Below, one piece after another: positions 30,548 through 43,958 of a stretch of 64,000 nt of DNA. Positions within the stretch are counted from its first letter, which is position 1, and each line of letters opens with the position of its first letter. Location: assembly GCF_012272835.1 (NCBI RefSeq), contig NZ_JAAWWK010000005.1, positions 208,125 through 272,124 of the forward strand, written 5' to 3'. Below the pieces are notes generated by a model that did not search any database, was not told the DNA's origin, and saw nothing but the letters and a program-made list of their open reading frames with translations. The translations under genes and the position numbers were made by a program. This DNA is from Spongiibacter thalassae (lineage in GTDB: Bacteria; Pseudomonadota; Gammaproteobacteria; Pseudomonadales; Spongiibacteraceae).

Positions 30548-30614
30548 GCAGTAGTCCGGTTGAAATAGGTGATCGCAAAATTATCTCAAATTACGGGGGT
30601 TATGCAGAGCTTCC

Positions 30615-31708
30615 TTAGGTCGGCGTTGAACGATAACGCCGCTGTTATCGTGCTCGCCCTTAGTGGTGACGCTATGGAGTGGGAGCTAGGAAGCCCAATT
30701 TTTCGACGCCTCGTCATGGGCTGGAAGGTGATGCATCAAAAGCAGGTTGCAATTCTGGTTGAAAAAGCGGCAATAGCTTCTGATGAAATCAAGCAAGACT
30801 TAGCCTTGCTAGCTAGCTTGGGGGTGTTGATCGCAGAATACGATGGCAAAGCACCTTATCCGGGTGTTTGTGCGCCAGTGCAAGTCGGATACAGGGACGG
30901 TTCAAGCAAAACCCTTCTTGGGGATAATTTAATTGCCGCTTGCCCTGGAAGCCACTTTCTTGCAAGTGATGAGCAGTCGATGTGGGTAACAACTGATCAG
31001 TTTTCAGGATATCGATTCCAGAAAATTGATGCTGCGCAATGGCAAGCGCAGCGAAATGGCGCTGAAGTGGTAGAAGTTCATACTGAACTGAATGGCGCAG
31101 CTCGAAAAATGTCGTCGCGTTTTATCAGTTTGCTCGAGCAAAAGGCGCCTTCATTTTTCAAAGCTGTACGGGATGAAAAAGTCAGTCGGCTTGTTTACGA
31201 GGACCGATACCTAAAGTCTCCTTCATCGGTCATCATTCTGGCAGGCATGCTTCGAGGTTTCTCTTTGGACGAAAACTGCGCTGTCGAAATCCTAACCGCG
31301 AGAGCGACCAGCGACCGAATAGGGCGTTTTAACTGGCACGATTGGCTGGACGAGGAAGACCAACGGGTTGTCACCCAGGCGTTTTTGAAACTGAGTTTAA
31401 AAGATGCAGAAGAGAGCGGCCCAAAAATCCAGGTCAGCGTTGCTGATTCGGTTAAGGAGCTCACTCACAGGCGGGTGTTAACTCTCGAGTTAACGTCCGG
31501 TGAAAAATATACTCTGGCCTTCGATCAGGGCGTAGGGTACTGGACAACTAAGTCTGAATATCGGTACAGGGAGTTCGATTTCACTGATGACCCAAAGGCC
31601 CAGATTACTAGAATGCTGGAAATTGGAGCCGCCTGTGATGTTGTAAACTCGGGAGACTGGTCGACGGATATCACGATTTATCGCAGCGAAGATCGAAAAA
31701 TATCGTAA
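30615..31708 (+). pseudogene. Unknown protein, 5' end removed at IS5 copy 2
   Basis: About 364 native codons from LRSALNDNAAVIVLALSGD onward, joined in frame to the IS end (an open frame starts with GTG at 30569 inside the IS). Soluble, mixed alpha/beta. Noticeable segments are RFISLLEQKAPSFFKAVRDE, RLVYEDRYLKSPSSVIILAG and GRFNWHDWLDEEDQRVV. The general look recalls C-terminal parts of large defence helicase-type proteins, but I cannot name a family. A 29-aa membrane peptide gene follows after 14 bp. Native length unknown. Confidence 0.6.
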
Positions 31709-32175: not shown

Positions 32176-32220
32176 CTCATAACCCGAAGGTCGTAGGTTC
32201 GAATCCTGCCCCCGCTACCA
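32176..32220 (+). other. 3' fragment of initiator (formyl-Met) tRNA gene, attachment-site scar
   Basis: 45 bases from CTCATAACCCGAAGG through the T-arm (GGTTCGAATCC) to CCCCCGCTACCA match the 3' half of bacterial tRNA-fMet. This includes the CAT anticodon loop and the encoded CCA. Upstream sequence does not form the acceptor 5' strand, D-arm or 5' anticodon stem, so it is not a functional tRNA. Such fragments mark the far end of an element integrated at the 3' end of a tRNA gene. Confidence 0.8.
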
Positions 32221-32317: not shown

Positions 32318-32452
32318 GTTTTGAAAATCGAGAGACCGGAGGTGGGCTCATAAACGACCTTCGGGCATCCCGAGTTCGAAATGTCGCGCGCTTAAAATCC
32401 AAAGAATTATCTGGCAGTCGCAGCGTATACGCCTCGATGGCAATGAATATTG

Positions 32453-33109
32453 CTATTCAATAATGGACCGTACTTGTGCGTTGCTGTTTATGTGGTTTAT
32501 TAGCTCAGCCGTTCGGCGAAGGCTAGATATACTGCCAGGCACCAGCATCGTGCTGCCATGGGAGAGATTATTGCGCAGCCCAGAAACAATTCCGATATAG
32601 TAGTGAACACCTAGGTTTCGAGTTAAACCATCTTGCAGGTCGTCAACGGTAATGTGGCGACTTGGATCTTCCGGTACTTGACCTGCAGCTCGCAATTTAT
32701 CTGCAGAGCGCTTTCGCTCTTCTCGAATACCTGCTTTGGTAAGATCGTCCAACCGATCTCCGAAGTAAGCCGTATCCAGTAACCCTGCATCAAAAGCCCA
32801 GCGCAGTAGACGACCCAAACCAATTGGCGTCTTCCCGGGTGCAAGCTTCGCATGGATTCTCTTCAATGCAAGCTCAAGCGTACTAAATCCGACACTTTCT
32901 GCCACTTGGTGAAAGCGATAAACAAAGCGTGAATATAAAGCAACGTTCTTGGCAGTTTCAAAAAGCTGGCGAACGTCCACATCTATACTGGTATCTAGAG
33001 TGACCAAGGACAACTCAGCGTGAAAATCTTCAATCTCGCCGGCTAGGAACGGTCGATCATACTCAAAAATGGTCGATAATGATTTAAGGGGGTCTTTGAC
33101 GTTTTCCAT
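32453..33109 (-). CDS. HEPN-like protein (218 aa)
   Basis: Helical protein. The segment SGLRNNLSHGS (about residues 177-187) fits the HEPN Rx4-6H motif (Arg-Asn ... His), the RNase active site of many toxin and abortive-infection proteins. The rest includes LGRLLRWAFDAGLLDTAYFG and an Arg/Lys-rich helix EERKRSADKLRAAG. It is last in the minus-strand run after the STAND gene and its partner (171-bp gap), close to the tRNA scar. The HEPN assignment rests on the motif and helical context only. Possible RNA-cleaving effector or toxin. Confidence 0.6.
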   Translation of the reverse strand: MENVKDPLKSLSTIFEYDRPFLAGEIEDFHAELSLVTLDTSIDVDVRQLFETAKNVALYSRFVYRFHQVAESVGFSTLELALKRIHAKLAPGKTPIGLGRLLRWAFDAGLLDTAYFGDRLDDLTKAGIREERKRSADKLRAAGQVPEDPSRHITVDDLQDGLTRNLGVHYYIGIVSGLRNNLSHGSTMLVPGSISSLRRTAELINHINSNAQVRSIIE

Positions 33110-33280
33110 GGAAAGTACTCAGAGAACCGCGCACGACAGCTGACTAAAACATATTGCTGTATTCATGATTAGCCACCTATGGATATTTATCTTTACTGAA
33201 TAACACATACCGAAGGGCATTTTTCAGTAAAGTCTTAAAAACTCATAAGGCCGGACTCGCCAGAAGCGGACATTGCCATT

Positions 33281-33994
33281 TTACTCACCTTTATCCGATA
33301 ATTCATTTTTTAGCTCGTTTAGCTTTCCACATAACTTATCAATAAAGTCGCACACACTGTCGACCGCATTTTCAACCTCTGATTTACCCGAAGAAACTCT
33401 TTCAGATGTGCGAAAATCCAGTTCCTCTTCAGCCCAAGAAGTCAAAAAATCATATATCTTCTGCTCTTCGCCTGAGAAGACAGAGGGAGGCACTTGACGA
33501 TTCCCTATAGACTCTAATGAAACAAATTCAATAAAATGCAATGTCCTGTATAAGTCAACAAGCATTGAGAAGCTGTCTGCTGCAAGTGATTCATATTTAC
33601 CTAGCCTATTTCTCTCCCATACATTTGCTTCGGGAGAAAGTATGCTCAATGAGTCGATAATCCCTTTGAATCGAGCTAATGGATAAGCATCTGCTTTTAA
33701 AGAGGCCCTGTGTTTCCATACTTTCAGTATTAATTCGACAGCTTGCTTCTGGTACTCTTCTTTCTTTTCAGGGTTACTCTCCCGTTCAGCTCGATCCATC
33801 ACTTCTGCCAAGTGGTGGGACATCCATTTTCCGAGAGTGTCACAGCTATCTGAAAAACCCAGCTCAGCCGCCAGATGGTGACCAAGTACCAACACATCCT
33901 TCAGTGGTAAAGATTTCTCCAGTTCTTCTGAAAAGATAGAGTCTTGCGTACCGCGCTTCTTTTTCGGAGTCTTCGTTATATTTTGTAATTCCAT
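33281..33994 (-). CDS. Helical partner protein overlapping the STAND gene (237 aa)
   Basis: Charged helical protein with a conserved-looking core VLGHHLAAELGFSDSCDTLG then KWMSHHLAEVMDRAERES, and a long C-terminal helix (VENAVDSVCDFIDKLCGKLN). Its 5' end overlaps the 3' end of the STAND gene by 131 bp in another frame. The core lies partly within the overlap, so the long version is probably real; an internal ATG near 33823 is the alternative. Translational coupling suggests the two proteins act together. I do not recognise a named family. Confidence 0.65.
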   Translation of the reverse strand: MELQNITKTPKKKRGTQDSIFSEELEKSLPLKDVLVLGHHLAAELGFSDSCDTLGKWMSHHLAEVMDRAERESNPEKKEEYQKQAVELILKVWKHRASLKADAYPLARFKGIIDSLSILSPEANVWERNRLGKYESLAADSFSMLVDLYRTLHFIEFVSLESIGNRQVPPSVFSGEEQKIYDFLTSWAEEELDFRTSERVSSGKSEVENAVDSVCDFIDKLCGKLNELKNELSDKGE

Positions 33995-36900
33995 CTTTAC
34001 TTGCTCTTCGTGTTATTTCGACTTCAATAATCAAATCTAATTCAACTTCATTTAGGTATTTCTTAAGGTAATATGATGATATTTTCAGGCGATGCCCATC
34101 GGAAATAACATCTTCTTCATATATGTATTCCCTTTGTCTGGAATCGTCTCTAACGTCACCCCATGCTTCATAAGCAAACGCATTCTCTCCATTGGAATCA
34201 ACCCAGCTAACCGGATAACTATTGGTGCGGTGCAATCCTAGTATCTTAACGACCTCTTCAGAGGGCATACTTTCAATCATACGAACACCATGATTAAACG
34301 TATCTTTCTCATCCAATCGTGAATCACCAGAATGTTCACTGATCCAGCCACGCAATAGATAGGGGTCATCGTCTATCTCAAACTTATTACCCGCGGGTGG
34401 CAGGCGATAATCATGCGAGTCATCAGATGTTTGAAGAGCCCGAACCAAGGACAGGCCTGTATCAGGGTTAACTAGAGAAGATGATATTCTCACGGTAGAA
34501 CGGTGCTTACTGGTTCGTATACTGTGATACGAATCAACAGTTAGACTTTTATCACCAGAGGATAAGCCGATCTCCAACTCAAAATCATAAGCGTTGATTT
34601 CAGCTATCCAGCTCTCTACCTCAACAGAAGGAGGTTTGTGAAAGCGGCTTTCCAGCGGAGTCGGGCATCGAAGATCACTCGACCAGTGTGGCGGCTGAGT
34701 TAACCCCTCTTGCCTTAAAAAACCATCTAACGTTCCGTAATCGTCATCATCATATTCAGCTTCAGCCAGCGAATTTTCAACCATTAGAGAGCCAATGCTA
34801 CACCACATAGCATGCCACTCCAGATAATACCGATGCCGTTCAATCGTCGGCATAGAACCGTGACTATGACTGTAAAGATTATAGTTAGCCCGTTCGAATT
34901 TATATTTCCTTGGTTCGTTTTCCCATGCTGACAAATCTGAACCGCTTTTCCATCGATCAATGATCCAAGCTTCAGCCTCGTCAAGAAACATCTCTTGGTC
35001 TACATCAGAGAAACACCTTATCGCCCCTGGATATACATAACTTAGAGTATCTAGCGAATCAAAACGAAACCGTCTCTCTTTATCCTCCTCATGAAACCCT
35101 CCACGGGAAACTCTACGCTTAGGTTTTTCGGTAACTAAGTCTGAGGTATTAATACTGCGTACCGCAGCAATTTCATATTCATCGAAATCCAAGAAACCGC
35201 CTGAAATCAGCTTGATCAAACAAGATTTAGCAAAATGGCGCATTAATACGTGCGGAAACTCTTGATCAGTAGCAATACTCAACAGCCAACGCGCCAAAGA
35301 TACAATCGCCTCTGGCTCCTCGGATGCAATTCGATCAAATGTAACGATGAGCCAAAGACGTGCTGACAACCAATAAAAAGGCACGTTATCTTCACGATAG
35401 CCTGGCATAGATTTACGGTCATATAGAACGGTCAACGCGACTATTGTATTAAAATCACCCATTCTGGCAGATGCTCTAATACTATGCGCCGCTCTCCATC
35501 TCACCCTAGTATCTACATCACCTAGAAATGAATAGAGTTGACATGCTAACGCTGACTCAGCTGAGCGTTCAGAATCAATTACTTTTGTTGGGATTTTTAA
35601 GCGTGTGCTCAACCGATGAATATACCGAGTAGTGACATCTGCAATTTGTTCATCGCTGCAATAATCAGCCAGCAGTCTGATCACCGAATATAGCTTGGTT
35701 AATGGCAAAAATTCGGCATTTCGTTCCAGACCATCTAGCAGCAAACTAACCGTCTCTTCTTTATTCAAATGAAGGCTATGAATTACGCCTTTTAGCATCC
35801 CCTTGTCGTAGCCATAACTTTCATTGTAAGAAAATTCGCCCAAGTGATTAGCAATCAAAATTGGTAGGTTTTCCTCCCTCCAGGAAGATATAGCATGGGA
35901 TGATCCTACCCAGAGGTTAATACAGTCAGTTAATGTTTTAGCCCATGTATAGCCAACATCATCAATTACTCGATCATCAGCTAGAAGATTCAGAAAATTA
36001 ATACGATCTTTTGATTCCAAACGACTGCTGGCTGACATCAAGAAGTCATCGGTCCCAATATAAAGCTTCTTACCTCTAGCCTCCTTCTTTTTAGCTTTTA
36101 TCAAATCTACAAAATCAGTAGGTGATTCAAAGGAGATTTCCGCAAGATTTACACGGTCAAGAAACTCCTTTTCTGTTATCTCCCTAGCTTTAGAGTCGAG
36201 CTTATCGCTATCAACATCAACCTTAATAGTTTCTCTGTTTTGTACCTTAAACTGAATTAGTTGATTTAGTGCCGAATGCCAATATCCACTATCATCGTCA
36301 TACGGGATTAGCTCATTTAGCGTTTGACATACTTTGGAGCTACCATTCTTGCTGAACCGTAACAGCTCGGCTCTAGCGACTTCTTCTATTAGCTGCCTGG
36401 AATTTTGAGAGTTTACAGCCGATACCAGCTTGGTAAGAAACTCACCACTCAGATCATCACAAAAATTAAGTAGAGATGCTGCCTGTGCAGAGCTTATAGT
36501 TCCCTCTGATAAACCCGTTGACATCAATGCTGGTAGGGTTTCATTGGCTGAAACCAAATCGAAATCTTCCCAATACCCGATCAGACTGATGGCTTTAGCC
36601 ATATCCAATATAGCAACAGCAGAAATCGCATCCCCCCAAGGGAAATGATCATATCCCTCAAGAAGAGTACCGTATTCCGTTATTATCGCCGCCATCTGAT
36701 TAGCTGTTTGTTGCGAAACTCCTGTCGAAAAGTGCTTTTTGGCGTTTTTGGATAACGTTGAAAATAGAGTTACATCACGCATAGCATCGACATCAACGTC
36801 ATTAGCGATATTAACTGCAATTTTGAATACCTCCCTAGCTTCATCCTTGTCCACAAAGAGCAATATTCTGGACAAATCCAGAAGAATACTGATTTTTTCA

Positions 36901-39900
36901 CTAGCTGCTGCTTTTAGAGCCTTTACTTCAACTGATCGGTCGTAAATGTCTTTAGCAACCAATAATCTTAACTCAGGTATTTTTATTAGATTTGAAATAA
37001 CTTTGCGTTGGCCGGAAGAATATACAGATGGCCACTCTTTAAAACATGCCTTAGACAAGGTTAATATTGTATTCATATCAACATCTGGCATTACTGATAG
37101 ACTTGCTACAGATAAGGAAAGCCGACTACATATAGATTCAAAATAATGCTCTCTAGGCATTCTCCAAGAATTTGCAAATAAAGACCTTAGTGCAGAATTA
37201 ACTTTATCCCCAGCATCTTTAGGCAATATATTGGATAGCAATATGTCTGCACGGACAGCATAGACTGTCATTAAATTAGACAGGCTTTCTTTTATTTCCT
37301 TGTGTTTTTCCGATAATTTTTGCTTCTTCCTGTTTTTTTCAGCCTCTTCAAGATTTTCATGTATAGCTGAATCAATCCAATATAATTCTATTGTGACGTC
37401 GAGACCACGATGACGCATCAACAAAGAGTAAGCTCTAAAAGCAATATCGTTTTTAAGAATGTCATGTATGTAGATGTTATTAACTAAACGCCATTTATCT
37501 GGGCATAGATATTCAAGGATTGGCTCAACAGTGGACAAATCCACTCCGTTGGCTGCCAGAATTTCACAGCCACTAAGTAGCATTTCTGGGTAGTTGAACT
37601 CGCCTGCGTCTCCTGAAGTGTGCCGTTCCAACTCCTTCAGATCGCAGTACTTCAGTATCCTCTTGTTACACAGTGACTTCTCAAGAGCGGCACAGTTAAT
37701 ATCATTACCGGCAAGTGCTAAATGTATGCCGAATAATGATGACCAAGGCTCGGGGATACAGCCACTACTTAAAAATTCTTGAATAGTAGCTGCCTTCCCT
37801 GATGACAATAGACGACCCACGAGTAAGAGTGCGATCTTGTAATGAATACTTCTCGGCTTCCAACTACAAATAAAGTCATATGCAGCCTTATAACCCTCCA
37901 TATCCAAGACTGAATGAGCAATAGCAGCAATATCATCAAGCTCTATTGGCCAAGGCTCAGTATGTTGATGCCAATGCTCGCTTTTCTCAGATTTTTTCCG
38001 CTCAATGTCCTCACTTCGTCGATTCATCCATTCGCGAAGAATACGTTTCTTTTCGCGAGCAGCAATAAAGTCTTTGTCGGCGGCATCACGAGCAACTATA
38101 TGAGACAAGAATCTGCCATGACTTTCATACGTCTTTGACGAATAAAGTATGTTTCGACCTACGGTATCGGATGCAAAATGAATAGATAAGTCTGGATTCT
38201 CAGCAATAATCTTGTCCACGGCATCATCCGTTTTTATGGCTTCTGCACCAACCAACAAGGTAAATATCGCATCTGCTGGCTCACCTGCCGCACGGCATAC
38301 TTTCATTGCAAGTTGTAACCGTTGACGCTGGACTTCTCGACGAATTATTTGATCTTTTATGGCTAGTGGTGCTTCACTTTCCTGAATGATTTCTATGATT
38401 TTCTGGCCTTGTCCTGCTGAAAATAGTGCTGAAGCCAAATGCATTGCCGAATATTCATCGTTCTCGTGATGAGCGCAGAAATGGGCTGCTGAACGCTGAT
38501 AAGCCTCTAGCAGCTTCGGTTCAGCCTTTTTTCGGACAAAGAATTCAACATCCTCATCAAGAAACCCAACTTTGTCTTCAAGAACACGCATTCCCGGAAG
38601 GTCAGAGACAATATCATTAATCCTCTCTATTGATATTCCTACAACACTAGCCAAATGTTGCTTTGGAACTGGTGCAGGCAATGCAATTAATGACGAACAG
38701 ACAAGAGACAATGCATCAAAATCACCTTCTTTCAAAATTGCCTCTTCAAAGCGGGCTTCAAAGATTTGATCTAACCCCTTGCCATTTGGTCTTAAAAAAT
38801 CGATGGCTTTCCCCGGATCAGAACCTGCATATTCAAATGCGTAACTTTGCACCCGTGGATTTTGGTTAGATAAATTGTGGAAATCCTCTATCCACGCCTC
38901 CGTTGCATTGGGGTATTGGCGAGACACATTGAGCGCAGTCTCTTCAAGTGAGAAATTAGAAATTTCTACCGATTTGTATTTATCAGGAATAGATAAAGAT
39001 TCTAAGCGTCCAGTTCTTGCAGAGATCATCAGCCTAACATTACTCGGCAGATTACCAATCTTAATCAGCTCATGAACAAAACTAGTTTCTTCTGGTTTAC
39101 ACTGTTTTGCCCCCGTTACAGTATTATCCGCTGCATCAATAACAACGACCAACAATGCATCGCCCGCTTGAGCCTTTAAAACCTCACTTGCACTGTCAAC
39201 TCGTAAAGAAAAGGCTTTGAGAAAATCAATGGAAGAATCCGGACTAATCAGCAGCGGCAATCTTAACTGCGCCGAGGTTTCATTGATTATTTGCAAGTAG
39301 GCATCTTTGTCTCTATGTCGATAGGCTTCACTGTCCATATAAGTACCCGCGCCATAACAGTCATAGGTGATCATAACTGAGCCATCGGGCAATAGGCTTT
39401 CAACCTGTTTTAGTACGGTCGTCTTACCACTACCACCTTCTCCATGTAGGCAGATAAACTGGTCGCCCTTAATCATGGCAGTTTGTAACGCAGTAGCAGC
39501 GCTTCTACTAACCGAGTTTTCTACTAGCTTGAGTCTTGGAGGACATGGGAACAGAGCAAGAGGGTCTGACACATTCATCCATGTCAGCACTGTTTCTCTC
39601 GTGATATAACTTCCCGTAGCCTCCGGCAGCATCAACTTGTGAATTTGGTCTTTCAAATCCAGCACAAAGCCTCGATCAGCACTATGTGTTAGATTTAGAA
39701 TTTCATTGATCGCATTCTCTTCTTGCTCAAAGCGAGACCCCGTACCACACTCAGAAAAGTCGAAGAGTGAAATAAATTTTTTGAAGTTTCTTTTATTGAG
39801 GCCACTAGCGACCCTCAGCGTTTCATGTTTATTGTTGCATGCATCGGAAAGTGATCTCTGAAGGTCCGCACCAATGGGGCGATTACTGACTAGCCTGATT

Positions 39901-40304
39901 GTTAGCGCACTAGTGCTGATCAAATCCGGCCTAGTTTTCAATATGGCATTAAATGAATCAGCAAGCCCTCTGATGATGCTATTATTTGAAGACTTCGACT
40001 TGGAGTTTGTTAACTCTGAAACTGTCCAATTCTTTTCAGGCGTTGACGAGGAATACTTTAATTGTTCAATGACAATTTTTTCAGCTCGCTCTACCGTATG
40101 GCCACCATAGAATAATGCGCAATCAACGGAATCCCACTCTGATAATTCTTGCGAATTTTCATCATCAAGGTTTACACCTTCAACTGTTACAGCAGCTAAA
40201 GATGTATTTTGATCCAGCAATTGTAATGCCAAACGAAGAGCCCACCACTCATGAAAATCATCACCTGAATTAGAGCCTCTGGCACCGAGATATTCTGCTT
40301 TCAT
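33864..40304 (-). CDS. Giant STAND NTPase with N-terminal PD-(D/E)xK-type nuclease (Avs-like)
   Basis: 2146 aa. The N-terminal domain (about 1-230) has GDDFHEWWALRLALQLL, an acidic VDCALF (Asp61) and IEQLKYS (Gln81-x-Lys83). This is the D...QxK pattern of Mrr/DUF4297-type DNA endonucleases. A P-loop STAND/NACHT-like NTPase follows, with Walker A GEGGSGKTT (288-296, Lys294) and Walker B VVVIDAAD (386-393). The remaining 1,600 residues are helical-repeat-like and would form the sensor. The architecture is that of Avs anti-phage proteins, which recognise phage proteins and then degrade DNA, but it is longer than typical Avs4. Its DNA is visibly more AT-rich than the catabolic regions, consistent with transfer. 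Confidence 0.82.
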   Translation of the reverse strand: MKAEYLGARGSNSGDDFHEWWALRLALQLLDQNTSLAAVTVEGVNLDDENSQELSEWDSVDCALFYGGHTVERAEKIVIEQLKYSSSTPEKNWTVSELTNSKSKSSNNSIIRGLADSFNAILKTRPDLISTSALTIRLVSNRPIGADLQRSLSDACNNKHETLRVASGLNKRNFKKFISLFDFSECGTGSRFEQEENAINEILNLTHSADRGFVLDLKDQIHKLMLPEATGSYITRETVLTWMNVSDPLALFPCPPRLKLVENSVSRSAATALQTAMIKGDQFICLHGEGGSGKTTVLKQVESLLPDGSVMITYDCYGAGTYMDSEAYRHRDKDAYLQIINETSAQLRLPLLISPDSSIDFLKAFSLRVDSASEVLKAQAGDALLVVVIDAADNTVTGAKQCKPEETSFVHELIKIGNLPSNVRLMISARTGRLESLSIPDKYKSVEISNFSLEETALNVSRQYPNATEAWIEDFHNLSNQNPRVQSYAFEYAGSDPGKAIDFLRPNGKGLDQIFEARFEEAILKEGDFDALSLVCSSLIALPAPVPKQHLASVVGISIERINDIVSDLPGMRVLEDKVGFLDEDVEFFVRKKAEPKLLEAYQRSAAHFCAHHENDEYSAMHLASALFSAGQGQKIIEIIQESEAPLAIKDQIIRREVQRQRLQLAMKVCRAAGEPADAIFTLLVGAEAIKTDDAVDKIIAENPDLSIHFASDTVGRNILYSSKTYESHGRFLSHIVARDAADKDFIAAREKKRILREWMNRRSEDIERKKSEKSEHWHQHTEPWPIELDDIAAIAHSVLDMEGYKAAYDFICSWKPRSIHYKIALLLVGRLLSSGKAATIQEFLSSGCIPEPWSSLFGIHLALAGNDINCAALEKSLCNKRILKYCDLKELERHTSGDAGEFNYPEMLLSGCEILAANGVDLSTVEPILEYLCPDKWRLVNNIYIHDILKNDIAFRAYSLLMRHRGLDVTIELYWIDSAIHENLEEAEKNRKKQKLSEKHKEIKESLSNLMTVYAVRADILLSNILPKDAGDKVNSALRSLFANSWRMPREHYFESICSRLSLSVASLSVMPDVDMNTILTLSKACFKEWPSVYSSGQRKVISNLIKIPELRLLVAKDIYDRSVEVKALKAAASEKISILLDLSRILLFVDKDEAREVFKIAVNIANDVDVDAMRDVTLFSTLSKNAKKHFSTGVSQQTANQMAAIITEYGTLLEGYDHFPWGDAISAVAILDMAKAISLIGYWEDFDLVSANETLPALMSTGLSEGTISSAQAASLLNFCDDLSGEFLTKLVSAVNSQNSRQLIEEVARAELLRFSKNGSSKVCQTLNELIPYDDDSGYWHSALNQLIQFKVQNRETIKVDVDSDKLDSKAREITEKEFLDRVNLAEISFESPTDFVDLIKAKKKEARGKKLYIGTDDFLMSASSRLESKDRINFLNLLADDRVIDDVGYTWAKTLTDCINLWVGSSHAISSWREENLPILIANHLGEFSYNESYGYDKGMLKGVIHSLHLNKEETVSLLLDGLERNAEFLPLTKLYSVIRLLADYCSDEQIADVTTRYIHRLSTRLKIPTKVIDSERSAESALACQLYSFLGDVDTRVRWRAAHSIRASARMGDFNTIVALTVLYDRKSMPGYREDNVPFYWLSARLWLIVTFDRIASEEPEAIVSLARWLLSIATDQEFPHVLMRHFAKSCLIKLISGGFLDFDEYEIAAVRSINTSDLVTEKPKRRVSRGGFHEEDKERRFRFDSLDTLSYVYPGAIRCFSDVDQEMFLDEAEAWIIDRWKSGSDLSAWENEPRKYKFERANYNLYSHSHGSMPTIERHRYYLEWHAMWCSIGSLMVENSLAEAEYDDDDYGTLDGFLRQEGLTQPPHWSSDLRCPTPLESRFHKPPSVEVESWIAEINAYDFELEIGLSSGDKSLTVDSYHSIRTSKHRSTVRISSSLVNPDTGLSLVRALQTSDDSHDYRLPPAGNKFEIDDDPYLLRGWISEHSGDSRLDEKDTFNHGVRMIESMPSEEVVKILGLHRTNSYPVSWVDSNGENAFAYEAWGDVRDDSRQREYIYEEDVISDGHRLKISSYYLKKYLNEVELDLIIEVEITRRASKDGITKYNEDSEKEARYARLYLFRRTGEIFTTEGCVGTWSPSGG

Positions 40305-40398
40305 GTCTTAATAATCGATTTAAGGTTAATATTTAATGACTCATTTCGGTCGATTTCTGCCCTGTACTTAAGACTTGTAATGCTCATGCCCGTCACTC

Positions 40399-41940
40399 TC
40401 AGGCAGTCTTCTTCGCCTCTTGCGCGTTCTGAATACTGAGCGTTTCACGGTATTCCTCGGCTTCTGCCCGCATGGTCCAATGAACATCAGAACCGACTTC
40501 TCGCTCAACGATTTGTCGAATCTCGGCGAGAGTGGTCTTGAAGAATTCTTTGCGGTAGTTCACCCTATTTACTCGTGCGTGATCAAACTGCCTGTGAAGT
40601 TCAGCTTCGAGGGCGGGCGCATCTTCGGCACTGATGATGGCATGTACATCAAATGAGAATGGTACAGATGCATCACCGAGTTCTTTTACCCTATCGAGCG
40701 GCTCAAGCCTTCTAGTCATGCCGACTTTATATGTGTGCTCACCGAAACTACCGATATTGCTGATAACGTAAACATGCCCTCGGCGGGTTTGCTGGGCCAT
40801 CGACATGGCTCGCTGTTCCTTTTCTTCGGCCGCTTTTAGCTTGCCTTCCAAGTCGATAATTTGTGCCTCAAATTGAGCTCGTTGATCTTCGCCGGCTTGC
40901 GCCAACTCAACTCTAGCCTTCTGCATTGCATCTTGAAGTGAACGCTCTTCCTTCTGAGCTTCTTTCATCGCCTTTTCAATCTCTTTCCGGACACGCTCCT
41001 CTTCTCGCATTTGCTCACGAATTTCGCGTTGTTCTTCTTTTTCCTTTAGCTGAAGCTCTCGGACAGTAACGGCCCATTTCAGCTCTTCGAGGCGAGTGTC
41101 TAAATATGCTTGCTCGATACGCGCACTTCTGAATGGTTGGCCATGGAAATTGACTTGCGCAAAAGCATCAATGATTTCTTGCCTTAGCTTTCCGTAGTTA
41201 TTGTATTTTACTTTGGCTAAAACTGAATCTGCCTTACCGTTAAAGGCATCAATCACAAAATGGATGGCGGTCTCCCTTCGGTTCGCTTCTTTATAGTCAC
41301 AGTCAGCTGCGCGCCCATCTTTTACTAATTTGCGAATGCGTTCCCGCACAGTTTTCAACTGTTGGCCTGCATCCTTGTGGCTATACTCTGCTGCCAATTC
41401 ATCCAGAACAGAGTGATTGGGAATAATATAATCGTCGCGATATCCCTCAATCGCGTTTCTCATCGCGGTTACTACAGCAGAGAATTTGTCCGCGTTCTGC
41501 TTAGCGTCCAGCGCGTCCCCAGCAATTTTCTTAGCCTGCTCTCGCGCATAAGCAAGCAGGCTGTCGTGCTCGATTTGAGCCGCTTGCTCAATTTCAGAGG
41601 CCTGCTTTCTCGCAGCATCCAAAAGTTCGCGCTTTTCTTTGCTCGCATGTGTTGCGATGGTAGACGCTGCATGCTCAGCTTTCTCACGAATAGCTAGCGT
41701 AGTCTGTTCAATTTCCTCAGCTTCTGTTCTAACTTTGGCCACATAATTGTCAATGGATATAATAGGCGCATATTTCTGTTCCAAAGCCGAATACTTGAGC
41801 TGTAGCTCAGCTACAGAGCGCCTTTCATCCTCAATGGCACTTTTTAGCCTCTTTGTCTTTTTGTAAAATACAATTGCGAGAGCTATAGGTGCTATAACGA
41901 GCAAGAGTATTAGCAGCGGTGATATTGTCCCTGTATCCAT
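40399..41940 (-). CDS. SNIPE-like membrane nuclease: TM helix, coiled coil, DUF4041, GIY-YIG (Mug113)
   Basis: 513 aa. One N-terminal membrane helix (SPLLILLLVIAPIALAIVFY) is followed by a long coiled coil (about 28-170). The DUF4041 core is about 190-290 (KYNNYGKLRQEIIDAFAQVN, QPFRSARIEQAYLDTRLEEL), then a second coiled coil. The C-terminal GIY-YIG domain of Mug113/T5orf172 type is about 386-470, with GHVYVISN, YKVGMTRR and the catalytic Glu in EAELHRQF. This is the architecture of the SNIPE defence protein, which sits at the inner membrane and cuts phage DNA during entry. It is the first gene of the run that continues with the STAND gene 94 bp downstream. Confidence 0.85.
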   Translation of the reverse strand: MDTGTISPLLILLLVIAPIALAIVFYKKTKRLKSAIEDERRSVAELQLKYSALEQKYAPIISIDNYVAKVRTEAEEIEQTTLAIREKAEHAASTIATHASKEKRELLDAARKQASEIEQAAQIEHDSLLAYAREQAKKIAGDALDAKQNADKFSAVVTAMRNAIEGYRDDYIIPNHSVLDELAAEYSHKDAGQQLKTVRERIRKLVKDGRAADCDYKEANRRETAIHFVIDAFNGKADSVLAKVKYNNYGKLRQEIIDAFAQVNFHGQPFRSARIEQAYLDTRLEELKWAVTVRELQLKEKEEQREIREQMREEERVRKEIEKAMKEAQKEERSLQDAMQKARVELAQAGEDQRAQFEAQIIDLEGKLKAAEEKEQRAMSMAQQTRRGHVYVISNIGSFGEHTYKVGMTRRLEPLDRVKELGDASVPFSFDVHAIISAEDAPALEAELHRQFDHARVNRVNYRKEFFKTTLAEIRQIVEREVGSDVHWTMRAEAEEYRETLSIQNAQEAKKTA

Positions 41941-42132
41941 GGGTAACTTCCTTGTATTAGATGGCGGCTTTAAATCGTTATTATGTGCCTGCTCAGCATG
42001 GCCTAATGCATCGGATCATTAGGTCAATTTTCCCCACTTTACTCCACGAGCGCTCATATCGCTAACGTTGTCTGCAGCCCCAAGCTTTGTAAATCTCGTT
42101 ATGCCTCTTAGCTTGCCTACACATAAACCAAA

Positions 42133-42354
42133 TTAATAACTGTCGTCTTCGAGCGTCAGCATTTCGCCGATCTCACAATCCAGATAACGGCACAATTTTT
42201 CCAGGGCTTCAAAATCAACACGCACTGCTGTTTCATGGTAAAGACGCGTAATAGTCCCCCTATTTATTTCTGTATCTCGCGCGACGTCGGCAATCTTCAG
42301 CCTCTTCTCTCCAAGTATTCTCGAAAGGTGGCACTTGATCACAATACTCTCCAA
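42133..42354 (-). CDS. XRE/Cro-type repressor of the integrative element
   Basis: 73 aa helix-turn-helix protein: LSRILGEKRLKIADVARDTE, then INRGTITRLYHETA, and a C-terminal helix LEKLCRYLDCEIGEML, as in small YozG/Cro-like regulators. It is divergent from the excisionase and integrase genes. Two copies of TGATC-N7-G(A/G)TCA lie between the divergent starts, one 11 bp from its own ATG. It probably represses both itself and the recombination genes. Confidence 0.85.
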   Translation of the reverse strand: MESIVIKCHLSRILGEKRLKIADVARDTEINRGTITRLYHETAVRVDFEALEKLCRYLDCEIGEMLTLEDDSY

Positions 42355-42364
42355 AAATAAAAAA

Positions 42365-42432
42365 TGATCCCCAAGAGGTCAAAAAATGTTGCAATAGGTC
42401 ATTTTAGTGCTATTATGATCTTTAGGAGATCA
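42365..42432 (+). promoter_or_regulatory. Rightward promoter with two XRE operator sites
   Basis: Sites TGATCCCCAAGAGGTCA (42365-42381) and TGATCTTTAGGAGATCA (42416-42432), centres 51 bp apart. Between them are TTGCAA (42389-42394) and TATTAT (42411-42416), 16 bp apart, forming a promoter towards the excisionase gene. The second site abuts the -10 box. The first site lies just upstream of the repressor gene, so it may mediate autoregulation. Confidence 0.6.
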
Positions 42433-42478
42433 AAAATACCGCATTAAAGATCGGCATGACTTACTGGAGAACGCAATT

Positions 42479-42715
42479 ATGGCACACACCTATTTAACGA
42501 CAGAAGAACTTTCTGAGCGCATCAAATATGACGTGCGCACCATTCGCCAACAACTCAACGACAGCGTGTTGCTCGAGGGCAAGCATTACATCAAGCCTTT
42601 CGGTCGACGCAAAATCCTATACCTGTGGGAAGCAGTTGAAGAAGAGATGCTTAGCGGACGCCAGACAGGTGAAATGGATATCCCTATGGCTAACGGAGCA
42701 GTGTGTCATGGGTAA
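42479..42715 (+). CDS. Excisionase-like helix-turn-helix protein
   Basis: 78 aa. MAHTYLTTEELSERIKYDVR followed by EGKHYIKPFGRRKILYLWEA resembles small winged-helix excisionase/AlpA-like proteins. Its stop codon overlaps the integrase ATG (8 bp), so the two are co-translated. The likely role is directing recombination or activating integrase expression. Confidence 0.75.
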   Translation: MAHTYLTTEELSERIKYDVRTIRQQLNDSVLLEGKHYIKPFGRRKILYLWEAVEEEMLSGRQTGEMDIPMANGAVCHG

Positions 42716-43958
42716 TATTAGGGCTCGAAAGGAAAACGGGAAATTACTGCTGGACTTCCACTTTCACGGAGTTCGTTTCAGAGAACAAACCGCACTTCCC
42801 GACAACCAGCAAAACCGCAAGAAGGTGCAAGCACTTCTCGACAAAGTAGAAGCCCGAATAAAGCTTGGGGAGTTCAACTATGCTGAGTTTTTCCCTGGTA
42901 GCAAAAACATTCAGAAATTCCTGGAGGTAAATCCTAACCACGCCAATACAAGTCAAACACAGCTTGTACGTGTACAAAACAGCAACATCCCCGCGAGGAT
43001 CTCAACAAGGGCACCGCTATTTGAAATCTTCGCACGCCAATGGCAAACCGAAAAGAAAATAGAATGGCGTGCATCCCATGCCCGCAACATTGAATCGGTG
43101 CTTTCAAATTCACTGATCAAGTTTTTCGGCAAACGCGTGTTATCCGATATCACCAAAGCCGAGATTCTCGAATTCCGTTCTAAACTGGCATCGAAGCCAG
43201 GTCGTGGCGGTAAAGAGCAGATTGCAGCCAAGACCATCAATACTCATATGGCGCTATTGAAGGCCATTTTGGAAGAGGCCTCAGATCGCTATTCCTTTGA
43301 GAACCCCTATAAGAACATCAAGCCACTCAAACTCCAGCGCAGTCACGTTGAGCCGTTTTCCTTAATCGAGGTTAACCGCATCATCGAATCGGTACGCGAA
43401 GATTACCGCAATTATTATGCAGTGCGCTTTTACTCGGGCATGCGTACCGGCGAAATCGATGGGCTTCGCTGGGAGTTCGTCGATTTTAAGCGCGGACTAA
43501 TCGCTATCAGAGAAACATTAGTTCAAGGCAAGACCGAATACACCAAAACTGACGGCAGCCAGCGGGATATTCCCATGCTAGGGCCAGTTAAAGCTGCACT
43601 AGAGGCTCAATATCAAGCAACCGGCAAGCTCAGTCCTTATGTATTCTGCAACACCGAAGGCAAGCCCCTGGACCACAACAATATTACTAAGCGTGTCTGG
43701 TACCCCCTACTCCGCCATCTAGGCCTGAAGATGCGACGGCCTTATCAAACCCGCCATACCGCAGCAACGCTATTACTGGCTTCCGGTGAAAATCCGGAGT
43801 GGGTAGCAAGGTTTCTCGGCCACGCCAGCACCGAAATGCTCTTCAAGGTGTACTCACGGTATATACCCAACCTGACCAGACAAGATGGTTCCGCATTTGA
43901 GCAAATGCTTGGCGTACAGGATGAACGGCACGCCGCCCAACAACACAGCACGGAATAA
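42708..43958 (+). CDS. Tyrosine recombinase (integrase)
   Basis: 416 aa from ATG 42708 (MGNIRARKENGKLLLDFHFH), with GGAG 9 nt upstream; the frame is open further upstream but only as an overlap with the excisionase gene. An N-terminal arm-binding DUF3596-like part and a SAM-like core-binding domain come first. The catalytic domain has Arg in SGMRTGEIDGLRW, the box II block YQTRHTAATLLLASGENPEW, LGHAS, and the tyrosine in VYSRY. Box II has the TRHT form seen in DUF3596-type integrases. Intact. It likely mobilises the surrounding defence element; its attachment site may be the tRNA-fMet 3' end. Confidence 0.92.
   Translation: MGNIRARKENGKLLLDFHFHGVRFREQTALPDNQQNRKKVQALLDKVEARIKLGEFNYAEFFPGSKNIQKFLEVNPNHANTSQTQLVRVQNSNIPARISTRAPLFEIFARQWQTEKKIEWRASHARNIESVLSNSLIKFFGKRVLSDITKAEILEFRSKLASKPGRGGKEQIAAKTINTHMALLKAILEEASDRYSFENPYKNIKPLKLQRSHVEPFSLIEVNRIIESVREDYRNYYAVRFYSGMRTGEIDGLRWEFVDFKRGLIAIRETLVQGKTEYTKTDGSQRDIPMLGPVKAALEAQYQATGKLSPYVFCNTEGKPLDHNNITKRVWYPLLRHLGLKMRRPYQTRHTAATLLLASGENPEWVARFLGHASTEMLFKVYSRYIPNLTRQDGSAFEQMLGVQDERHAAQQHSTE

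What the first reader, a model, noticed from the sequence alone, without database searches (positions are those of the whole stretch)
33281..40304. STAND nuclease and its partner overlap by 131 bp
The last 43 codons of the 2146-aa protein are in a different frame from the first 43 codons of the partner gene, and both frames look protein-like. Long overlaps are rare; this implies strict coupling and stoichiometry. A partner with KWMSHHLAEVMDRAE may be a required subunit, which would make this an Avs-like type with a second component.
Basis: partly seen in the sequence, partly recalled or inferred. Interest (0 to 1): 0.65.

Follow-up and report, generated by a model that had tools for sequence, protein, structure and literature searches.

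The report
Truly overlapping Avs3a–Avs3b defence genes
Two neighbouring bacterial genes of a known anti-phage defence system really do share 131 bases read in two frames, and the overlap recurs in relatives from many bacterial phyla, which is unusual for genes that run in the same direction.

Summary
The overlap is real. ORFs 33864-40304(-) and 33281-33994(-) share 131 bp in different frames. They are a divergent Avs3a/Avs3b pair (AVAST type III), so the "second component" is already known, not a new Avs type. In nine sequences (window plus eight relatives) the ATG at 33994 is in 9 of 9. Avs3a third-position divergence falls from 0.339 before the overlap to 0.119 in it, and the twelve lowest of 2104 windows reach into the overlap. 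Both frames are constrained; the partner starts at 33994, not at the internal Met.

Of 83 full-length Avs3a genes 79 have Avs3b downstream, all 79 in one phase, 78 with overlapping frames (77 of 81 without duplicates). Two trios without Avs3b show no such constraint. Onset of constraint follows the clade's own start codon in 4 of 5 clades.

"Strict coupling and stoichiometry" is not supported: the start lies about 128 nt inside avs3a and its region is not unusually structured. Avs3b is modelled as helical with a low-confidence overprinted tail, no fold match; function unproven. A 2008 survey found no real same-direction overlap over 60 bp.

The parts
33864..40304 (-). avs3a: 2146-aa STAND nuclease (N-terminal PD-(D/E)xK-type nuclease by homology to SeAvs3, NACHT ATPase, long repeat sensor)
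   Evidence: PADLOC Avs3a E=1.7e-215 over residues 8-2132; SeAvs3 8dgc E=6e-137; C-terminal model matches 8dgc Z=24.2
33281..33994 (-). avs3b: 237-aa helical partner
   Evidence: PADLOC Avs3b E=7.6e-21, residues 32-124; AF2 model
33864..33994 (-). 131-bp dual-coding overlap; avs3b in frame +1 relative to avs3a
   Evidence: both frames constrained
33995..34019 (-). avs3b initiation region inside avs3a; its first 16 nt are identical in 8 of 9 sequences (one change in the ninth); weak Shine-Dalgarno match
39420..39443 (-). Walker A / P-loop GEGGSGKT of the NACHT ATPase (avs3a residues 288-295)
   Evidence: NACHT above Pfam cut-off; G291, G293, K294 invariant in 10 rows; letters checked; motif name recalled
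33930..33959 (-). avs3a residues 2116-2125: predicted C-terminal beta-strand, encoded in the first half of the overlap, where avs3b has no predicted structure
   Evidence: (model residues 817-826)
33866..33904 (-). avs3b residues 31-43 (start of helix 31-44), encoded in the last third of the overlap opposite the poorly predicted avs3a tail

Best explanation
This is a divergent AVAST type III (Avs3) anti-phage pair whose two genes truly overlap. Avs3a is a STAND nuclease that, by homology, is held off until its repeat sensor binds a conserved phage protein (for SeAvs3 the large terminase), then tetramerises and cuts DNA. Avs3b is a small helical accessory protein, made from its own start codon at 33994 inside avs3a on the same mRNA. 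The shared 131 bases work by a trade: in the first half Avs3a's last confident beta-strand is encoded opposite Avs3b's disordered tail; towards the end Avs3a's loose tail is encoded opposite Avs3b's first conserved helix. SHOWN: both reading frames, both under purifying selection; start at 33994; conservation in one phase across the sampled family; partner found only in genomes with Avs3a in two samples. INFERRED: one mRNA; Avs3b acts with Avs3a (probably by contact, tuning or supporting sensing); independent initiation; the phage trigger.
For: PADLOC Avs3a/Avs3b matches. 79 of 83 full-length Avs3a with Avs3b, 79 of 79 in the same phase, 78 with overlapping frames (77 of 81 after removing two duplicate records). 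In 12 further loci, 7 have Avs3b and 7 of 7 are in that phase. Third-position suppression in the overlap, with the twelve lowest of 2104 windows there, and Avs3b third positions 0.17 in the overlap against 0.42 just outside, so both frames are held. Onset 13-34 nt upstream of the clade's own start codon in 4 of 5 clades: -156 for start -131, -90 for -74, -78 for -44, -165 for -152. Negative control: two trios of Avs3a without Avs3b show no suppression (1244 and 1556 of 1790 windows as low or lower). Avs3b in 6 of 390 and 4 of 398 genomes, each time in a genome that also has Avs3a (against 22, 41). Disorder/structure trade in the models. SeAvs3-like C-terminal fold.
Against: No experiment or complex model here; contact between the two proteins is not shown. 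Shine-Dalgarno match in the window's clade is weak (mean -2.66 against -1.61 background, 33% of background as good) and absent in the Bacteroidota clade (mean +2.06). The enteric clade's changepoint (-369) does not sit at its starts, the L083/L106/L122 trio is only mildly suppressed (266 of 1790), and three near-identical Psychrobacter sequences show none. Avs3a occurs without Avs3b in a separate clade and in two rows on the window's side of the tree. In one of the nine closest sequences (L054, a metagenome bin) the Avs3b match stops after about 133 residues although the contig goes on.
Confidence: 0.62

Rival explanations
1. The long overlap is only an over-extended start: the true avs3b start is GTG 33895 / TTG 33892 or the internal ATG at 33823.
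For: In a 2008 survey 409 of 715 long co-directional overlaps were 5' extensions of the downstream gene and none was judged real (abstract of PMC2478687). GTG -32 is present in 8 of 9 and TTG -29 in 7 of 9 sequences. One E. coli record annotates a later start (59-bp overlap).
Against: ATG -131 in 9 of 9; suppression of avs3a third-position change starts at about -156, not at -32; conserved avs3b block (residues 37-57) precedes the internal Met.
Confidence: 0.05
2. A programmed +1 frameshift makes an Avs3a-Avs3b fusion protein in addition to, or instead of, separate Avs3b.
For: Same relative frame (+1) in 79 of 79 pairs, as a frameshift would need.
Against: Constraint on the avs3b frame begins near clade-specific start codons rather than at a common slip site; an in-frame ATG before the avs3a stop is present in 74 of 79 pairs, and the four others with overlapping frames have other start codons there. 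Phase would also stay fixed once conserved codons overlap, and this phase is the commoner one for long overlaps anyway (PMC10666635 passages; PMC2542354 abstract). No slip site was searched for systematically.
Confidence: 0.06
3. The overlap is there to couple translation and fix the stoichiometry of a required Avs3a-Avs3b complex.
For: Close and overlapping same-direction pairs are enriched in subunits of complexes (PMC10666635 passages); Avs3b was found only with Avs3a in two genome samples.
Against: That enrichment concerns -8 to +10 nt; the start here is ~128 nt upstream of the stop; overlap length varies widely among clades; no unusual structure hides the start; predicted start strength varies from strong to none between clades.
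Confidence: 0.17
4. Avs3b is a brake (regulator or immunity-like protein) on the suicidal nuclease rather than a co-sensor, so avs3b cannot be lost while avs3a is intact.
For: Complete avs3b retained beside a 136-aa avs3a remnant on a Qipengyuania plasmid (L008); in two genome samples Avs3b never occurs without Avs3a.
Against: A full-length Avs3a without Avs3b lies on the window's side of the tree (L052; no remnant found by tblastn, 1280 bp held downstream); a whole clade lives without it. No direct evidence.
Confidence: 0.15

Closest known systems
AVAST type III (Avs3a + Avs3b), PADLOC PDLC02167/PDLC02168, NCBIfam NF041816/NF041817
   Same: Same two-gene order, whole-length Avs3a match, Avs3b N-terminal core match, overlap in the same phase (107 bp in a Klebsiella and an E. 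coli record)
   Different: Scores far below NCBIfam equivalog cut-offs (813.5 vs 2800; 76.5 vs 200 bits); 20-24% identical to the six canonical-type rows of the alignment; on the other side of the tree from canonical Avs3
SeAvs3, PDB 8dgc (Avs3 bound to phage PhiV-1 terminase)
   Same: Sequence E=6e-137; C-terminal model Z=24.2 over 714 residues, rmsd 8.7
   Different: No Avs3b-like sequence found in the PDB (best of two unrelated hits E=0.15); about 21-23% identity in the sensor region
holD-rimI overlap of Enterobacteria (longest real co-directional overlap named in PMC2478687)
   Same: Conserved same-direction overlap
   Different: 32-56 bp within Enterobacteria against 131 bp here, with overlapping frames in loci of nine named phyla

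Membership tests
AVAST type III (Avs3, broad sense) | Avs3a-type STAND protein matching the family profile end to end | tested here: met
   PADLOC Avs3a, residues 8-2132 of 2146, E=1.7e-215
AVAST type III (Avs3, broad sense) | Avs3b gene next to avs3a | tested here: met
   PADLOC Avs3b E=7.6e-21, but only residues 32-124 of 237 match
AVAST type III (Avs3, broad sense) | NACHT/STAND ATPase with P-loop | tested here: met
   NACHT 27.5 bits, cut-off 26.7; K294 invariant in 10 rows
AVAST type III (Avs3, broad sense) | N-terminal PD-(D/E)xK (Cap4-like) nuclease | tested here: inconclusive
   D61, Q81 and K83 conserved in >=90% of 10 rows and residues 6-837 align with SeAvs3; no Pfam nuclease hit; catalytic role recalled, not tested
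AVAST type III (Avs3, broad sense) | SeAvs3-like C-terminal sensor fold | tested here: met
   Foldseek E=8.6e-32; Z=24.2
AVAST type III (Avs3, broad sense) | Triggered by phage large terminase; anti-phage activity | not testable with these tools
   needs expression and phage challenge
NCBIfam equivalogs Avs3a / Avs3b (narrow sense) | Score above the curated cut-off | tested here: not met
   813.5 < 2800 and 76.5 < 200; so it is not filed as an NCBIfam equivalog

The most novel reading that the evidence does not exclude
The overlap is an evolutionary lock: avs3b (a brake or obligatory co-sensor of a suicidal nuclease) is written into the last structured codons of avs3a so that one gene cannot be lost or exchanged without damaging the other. 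This would make it a case of long same-direction dual coding kept across phyla for a selectable reason, contrary to the view that such overlaps over 60 bp are annotation errors.
Probability: 0.15. Interest if true: 0.72.

Novelty: new member of a known kind. Interest (0 to 1): 0.46.

Why it matters
A survey of 338 genomes found no real co-directional overlap of 60 bp or more and proposed a rule to flag such predictions (PMC2478687, abstract and section 8). The Avs3a-Avs3b overlap is a counter-example, with suppressed synonymous change in several clades and a built-in negative control. In practice, constructs or annotations that trim avs3b, or cut the end of avs3a, change both proteins, which bears on any test of whether Avs3b is needed. 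The absence of Avs3b from one Avs3a clade gives a natural comparison for its function.

Tried and rejected
Internal-start reading: rejected by constraint onset and start conservation. Frameshift fusion: disfavoured, not excluded. Start hidden in RNA structure: 91 nt folded, z=0.36 (one sequence only). Promoter-like sites in 32400-42600 are at the shuffled rate (21 vs mean 20.6). Fold search of the Avs3b model: 117 matches with E<=10, none at E<=0.001; the model is mediocre (pTM 0.45), so this says little. Conserved operon with the upstream PD-Lambda-1 gene: a homologue within 6 kb on the same strand in 1 of 91 loci, the window itself (several loci hold under 2 kb upstream). Viral contigs: one locus for each query, the same contig. 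Phage records: a Klebsiella Avs3a query finds none. Psychrobacter clade: three near-identical sequences, uninformative. Literature: 'Avs3b' 0 papers, and 'AVAST', 'Avs3', 'terminase', 'STAND' together 0 papers; other searches. The founding AVAST papers (10.1126/science.abm4096, 10.1126/science.aba0372) are not held, so whether they report on Avs3b or the overlap was not checked; what is said of sensing rests on passages of PMC12931631 and PMC11291478 and the 8dgc title. Of PMC3887535 only passages were seen.

Counting limits: the genome-contig scan was seeded by an alignment of ten pairs that all have Avs3b and returned the best 80 of 207, so 79 of 83 is biased upward. Of 94 loci counted, 11 were broken, cut or remnant Avs3a and are outside the 83; L030 and L111 were dropped before the count as duplicates; L025/L091 and L026/L093 proved to be the same DNA afterwards. 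In less biased samples the partner was found in 6 of 9 and 4 of 8 genomes with an Avs3a match, some of those matches being fragments; the window's own genome is in both. Of 18 plasmid records with an Avs3a match, 14 were fetched. The tree is FastTree with long-branch warnings. In the Avs3b structure alignment 69 rows were used; Avs3b under 200 aa or cut by a contig end were left out.

Full report
OBSERVATION. On the minus strand, ORF 33864-40304 (2146 aa) and ORF 33281-33994 (237 aa) overlap by 131 bp, 33864-33994. The partner's frame is +1 relative to the upstream gene.

IDENTITY. PADLOC names the pair Avs3a (E=1.7e-215, residues 8-2132) and Avs3b (E=7.6e-21, residues 32-124). NCBIfam gives the same names but at scores far below its equivalog cut-offs (813.5 of 2800; 76.5 of 200). 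Pfam adds a NACHT domain in Avs3a and nothing in the partner. SeAvs3 (8dgc) is the only PDB sequence match to Avs3a at E<=0.01; a model of Avs3a residues 1300-2146 matches it with Z=24.2 over 714 residues, rmsd 8.7. So the 'Avs-like type with a second component' is a divergent branch of AVAST type III. Public records annotate the canonical pair with a 107-bp overlap in a Klebsiella plasmid and an E. coli chromosome, so the overlap is visible there already.

IS THE LONG OVERLAP REAL? This needed testing, because a survey of 338 genomes classified all 715 co-directional overlaps over 60 bp as errors and named a 56-bp overlap as the longest real one (PMC2478687: abstract and section 8 read). In nine sequences (window, L009, L031-L035, L044, L054) the ATG at 33994 is present 9 of 9; the alternatives GTG -32 and TTG -29 are in 8 and 7 of 9. 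Mean pairwise divergence at Avs3a third positions is 0.339 over the gene before the overlap and 0.119 in the overlap; the twelve lowest of 2104 sliding 42-codon windows start at codons 2093-2104 and so reach into the overlap, codons 2105-2146. Site counts: 15 of 42 third positions vary in the overlap against 1608 of 2102 elsewhere (p=3e-8), while first positions, which are the partner's third positions, do not drop (19 of 42 against 835 of 2102, p=0.53). In the other direction, the partner's third positions diverge 0.17 inside the overlap and 0.42 just outside it, so Avs3a's frame is held as well. Suppression begins about 25 nt before the ATG (-156), and the first 16 nt of that stretch are identical in 8 of 9 sequences with one change in L054. 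Both frames are therefore real, and the start is 33994.

FAMILY-WIDE. Among 94 loci, 83 hold a full-length Avs3a; 79 of these have Avs3b downstream, 79 of 79 in the same phase and 78 with overlapping frames (in L057 it lies 832 bp away). 74 of the 79 have an in-frame ATG before the Avs3a stop, and four more have only other start codons there. L025/L091 and L026/L093 are the same DNA, so the distinct count is 77 of 81. Of 12 further loci from plasmids and E. coli, 7 have Avs3b, all 7 in the same phase (in L123 Avs3a itself is in two frames). Nine phyla are named for loci with overlapping frames. The onset of constraint follows the clade's own conserved start in four clades: -156 for start -131 (9 of 9 sequences), -90 for -74 (ATG in 13 of 17), -78 for -44 (14 of 14), -165 for GTG -152 (5 of 5); the enteric clade gives -369, which fits no start, although its last 40 codons are still below every other window. 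Negative control: two trios of Avs3a without Avs3b (L029/L126/L131; L027/L028/L128) show no suppression at their ends (1244 and 1556 of 1790 windows as low or lower), whereas the window, enteric and Mesorhizobium sets have 0 of 1790; L083/L106/L122, with a short overlap, have 266 of 1790. Three near-identical Psychrobacter sequences with an 11-bp overlap show no suppression.

WHO LACKS IT. In the order sample Avs3a-like matches occur in 9 of 390 genomes and Avs3b in 6 of 390, six of those nine; in the phylum sample 8 of 398 and 4 of 398, all four with Avs3a. A FastTree tree of 91 rows puts canonical Avs3 (59 rows, all with Avs3b), a clade of six without Avs3b, and the window's side (26 rows, 24 with Avs3b; L052 and L124 without) apart. 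If that tree is right, the overlap may be older than the split between canonical Avs3 and the window's branch, with loss in between; the root is not inferred and long branches are flagged.

ANATOMY OF THE SHARED STRETCH. The Avs3b model (mean pLDDT 74, pTM 0.45) is under pLDDT 50 at residues 1-9 and 14-28 and helical from residue 31; it has no PDB fold match at E<=0.001. In the Avs3a model the strand at residues 2116-2125 is confident and the last seven residues are not. So the first half of the overlap encodes Avs3a's last confident strand opposite Avs3b's disordered tail, and its last third encodes Avs3a's loose end opposite Avs3b's first helix. Rates agree: the last 45 nt show more change at Avs3a first positions (0.239) than the rest (0.138).

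MECHANISM. By homology, Avs3a is a nuclease switched on when its sensor binds a phage protein (SeAvs3 passages in PMC11291478; Avs1-4 passages in PMC12931631). Avs3b's role is unknown; the best guess, from its linkage to Avs3a, is that it works with Avs3a. Translation: the region around the start is not more structured than shuffles (z=0.36), the Shine-Dalgarno match is weak in this clade, and the start is far outside the short overlaps for which reinitiation coupling is described (PMC10666635 passages). I therefore favour independent initiation inside avs3a over strict coupling. The same phase everywhere needs no special mechanism: once conserved codons overlap, phase cannot drift, and this phase is the commoner one for long overlaps (PMC10666635 passages; PMC2542354 abstract).

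VERDICT. Observation confirmed; the partner is a known protein; the dual coding, its spread and its negative control are what is new here relative to what I could search (literature searches; the founding AVAST papers were not available).

Noticed in passing
window 32176-32220: An exact 45-nt copy of the 3' part of tRNA-Met; the other copy is in an intact tRNA-Met at C9:199731-199775 of the same genome. The two flank about 40.6 kb that may be an integrated island; the avs3 genes lie just beyond its right end.
   Followed up: partly
window 40399-41940 (-): PD-Lambda-1-like protein (DUF4041 + T5orf172; E=3e-121) directly upstream of avs3a; no homologue found within 6 kb upstream, as far as sequence is held, in the other 90 loci examined.
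   Followed up: partly
window 42528-43958 (+): Tyrosine recombinase (phage integrase family) next to the defence genes.
   Followed up: no
L008 8656-9690: Qipengyuania plasmid: a 136-aa C-terminal remnant of Avs3a followed by a complete overlapping Avs3b, beside an integrase gene.
   Followed up: partly
L130 2218-8413: Aliarcobacter plasmid: Avs3a-like protein split over three frames, the first annotated with a TIR domain and matching the profile only from position 226 on; no Avs3b found.
   Followed up: no
L027, L028, L126, L128, L131 (and L029, whose contig ends 292 bp after the gene): Clade of full-length Avs3a-like proteins (about 2150-2215 aa) with no Avs3b; possibly a separate Avs type.
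   Followed up: partly
L124 9189-11180: Tistrella Avs3a-like gene is followed, with a 4-bp overlap, by a histidine-kinase-like protein and a sigma-54 regulator instead of Avs3b.
   Followed up: no
window 32453-33109 (-) and 30569-31708 (+): Two ORFs next to the pair: no Pfam match above cut-off and no PADLOC or NCBIfam match for the first, no Pfam match for the second.
   Followed up: no
L054 12371-12784: In this metagenome bin of the window's own clade the Avs3b frame ends after 138 codons although the contig continues; decay or an assembly error.
   Followed up: no
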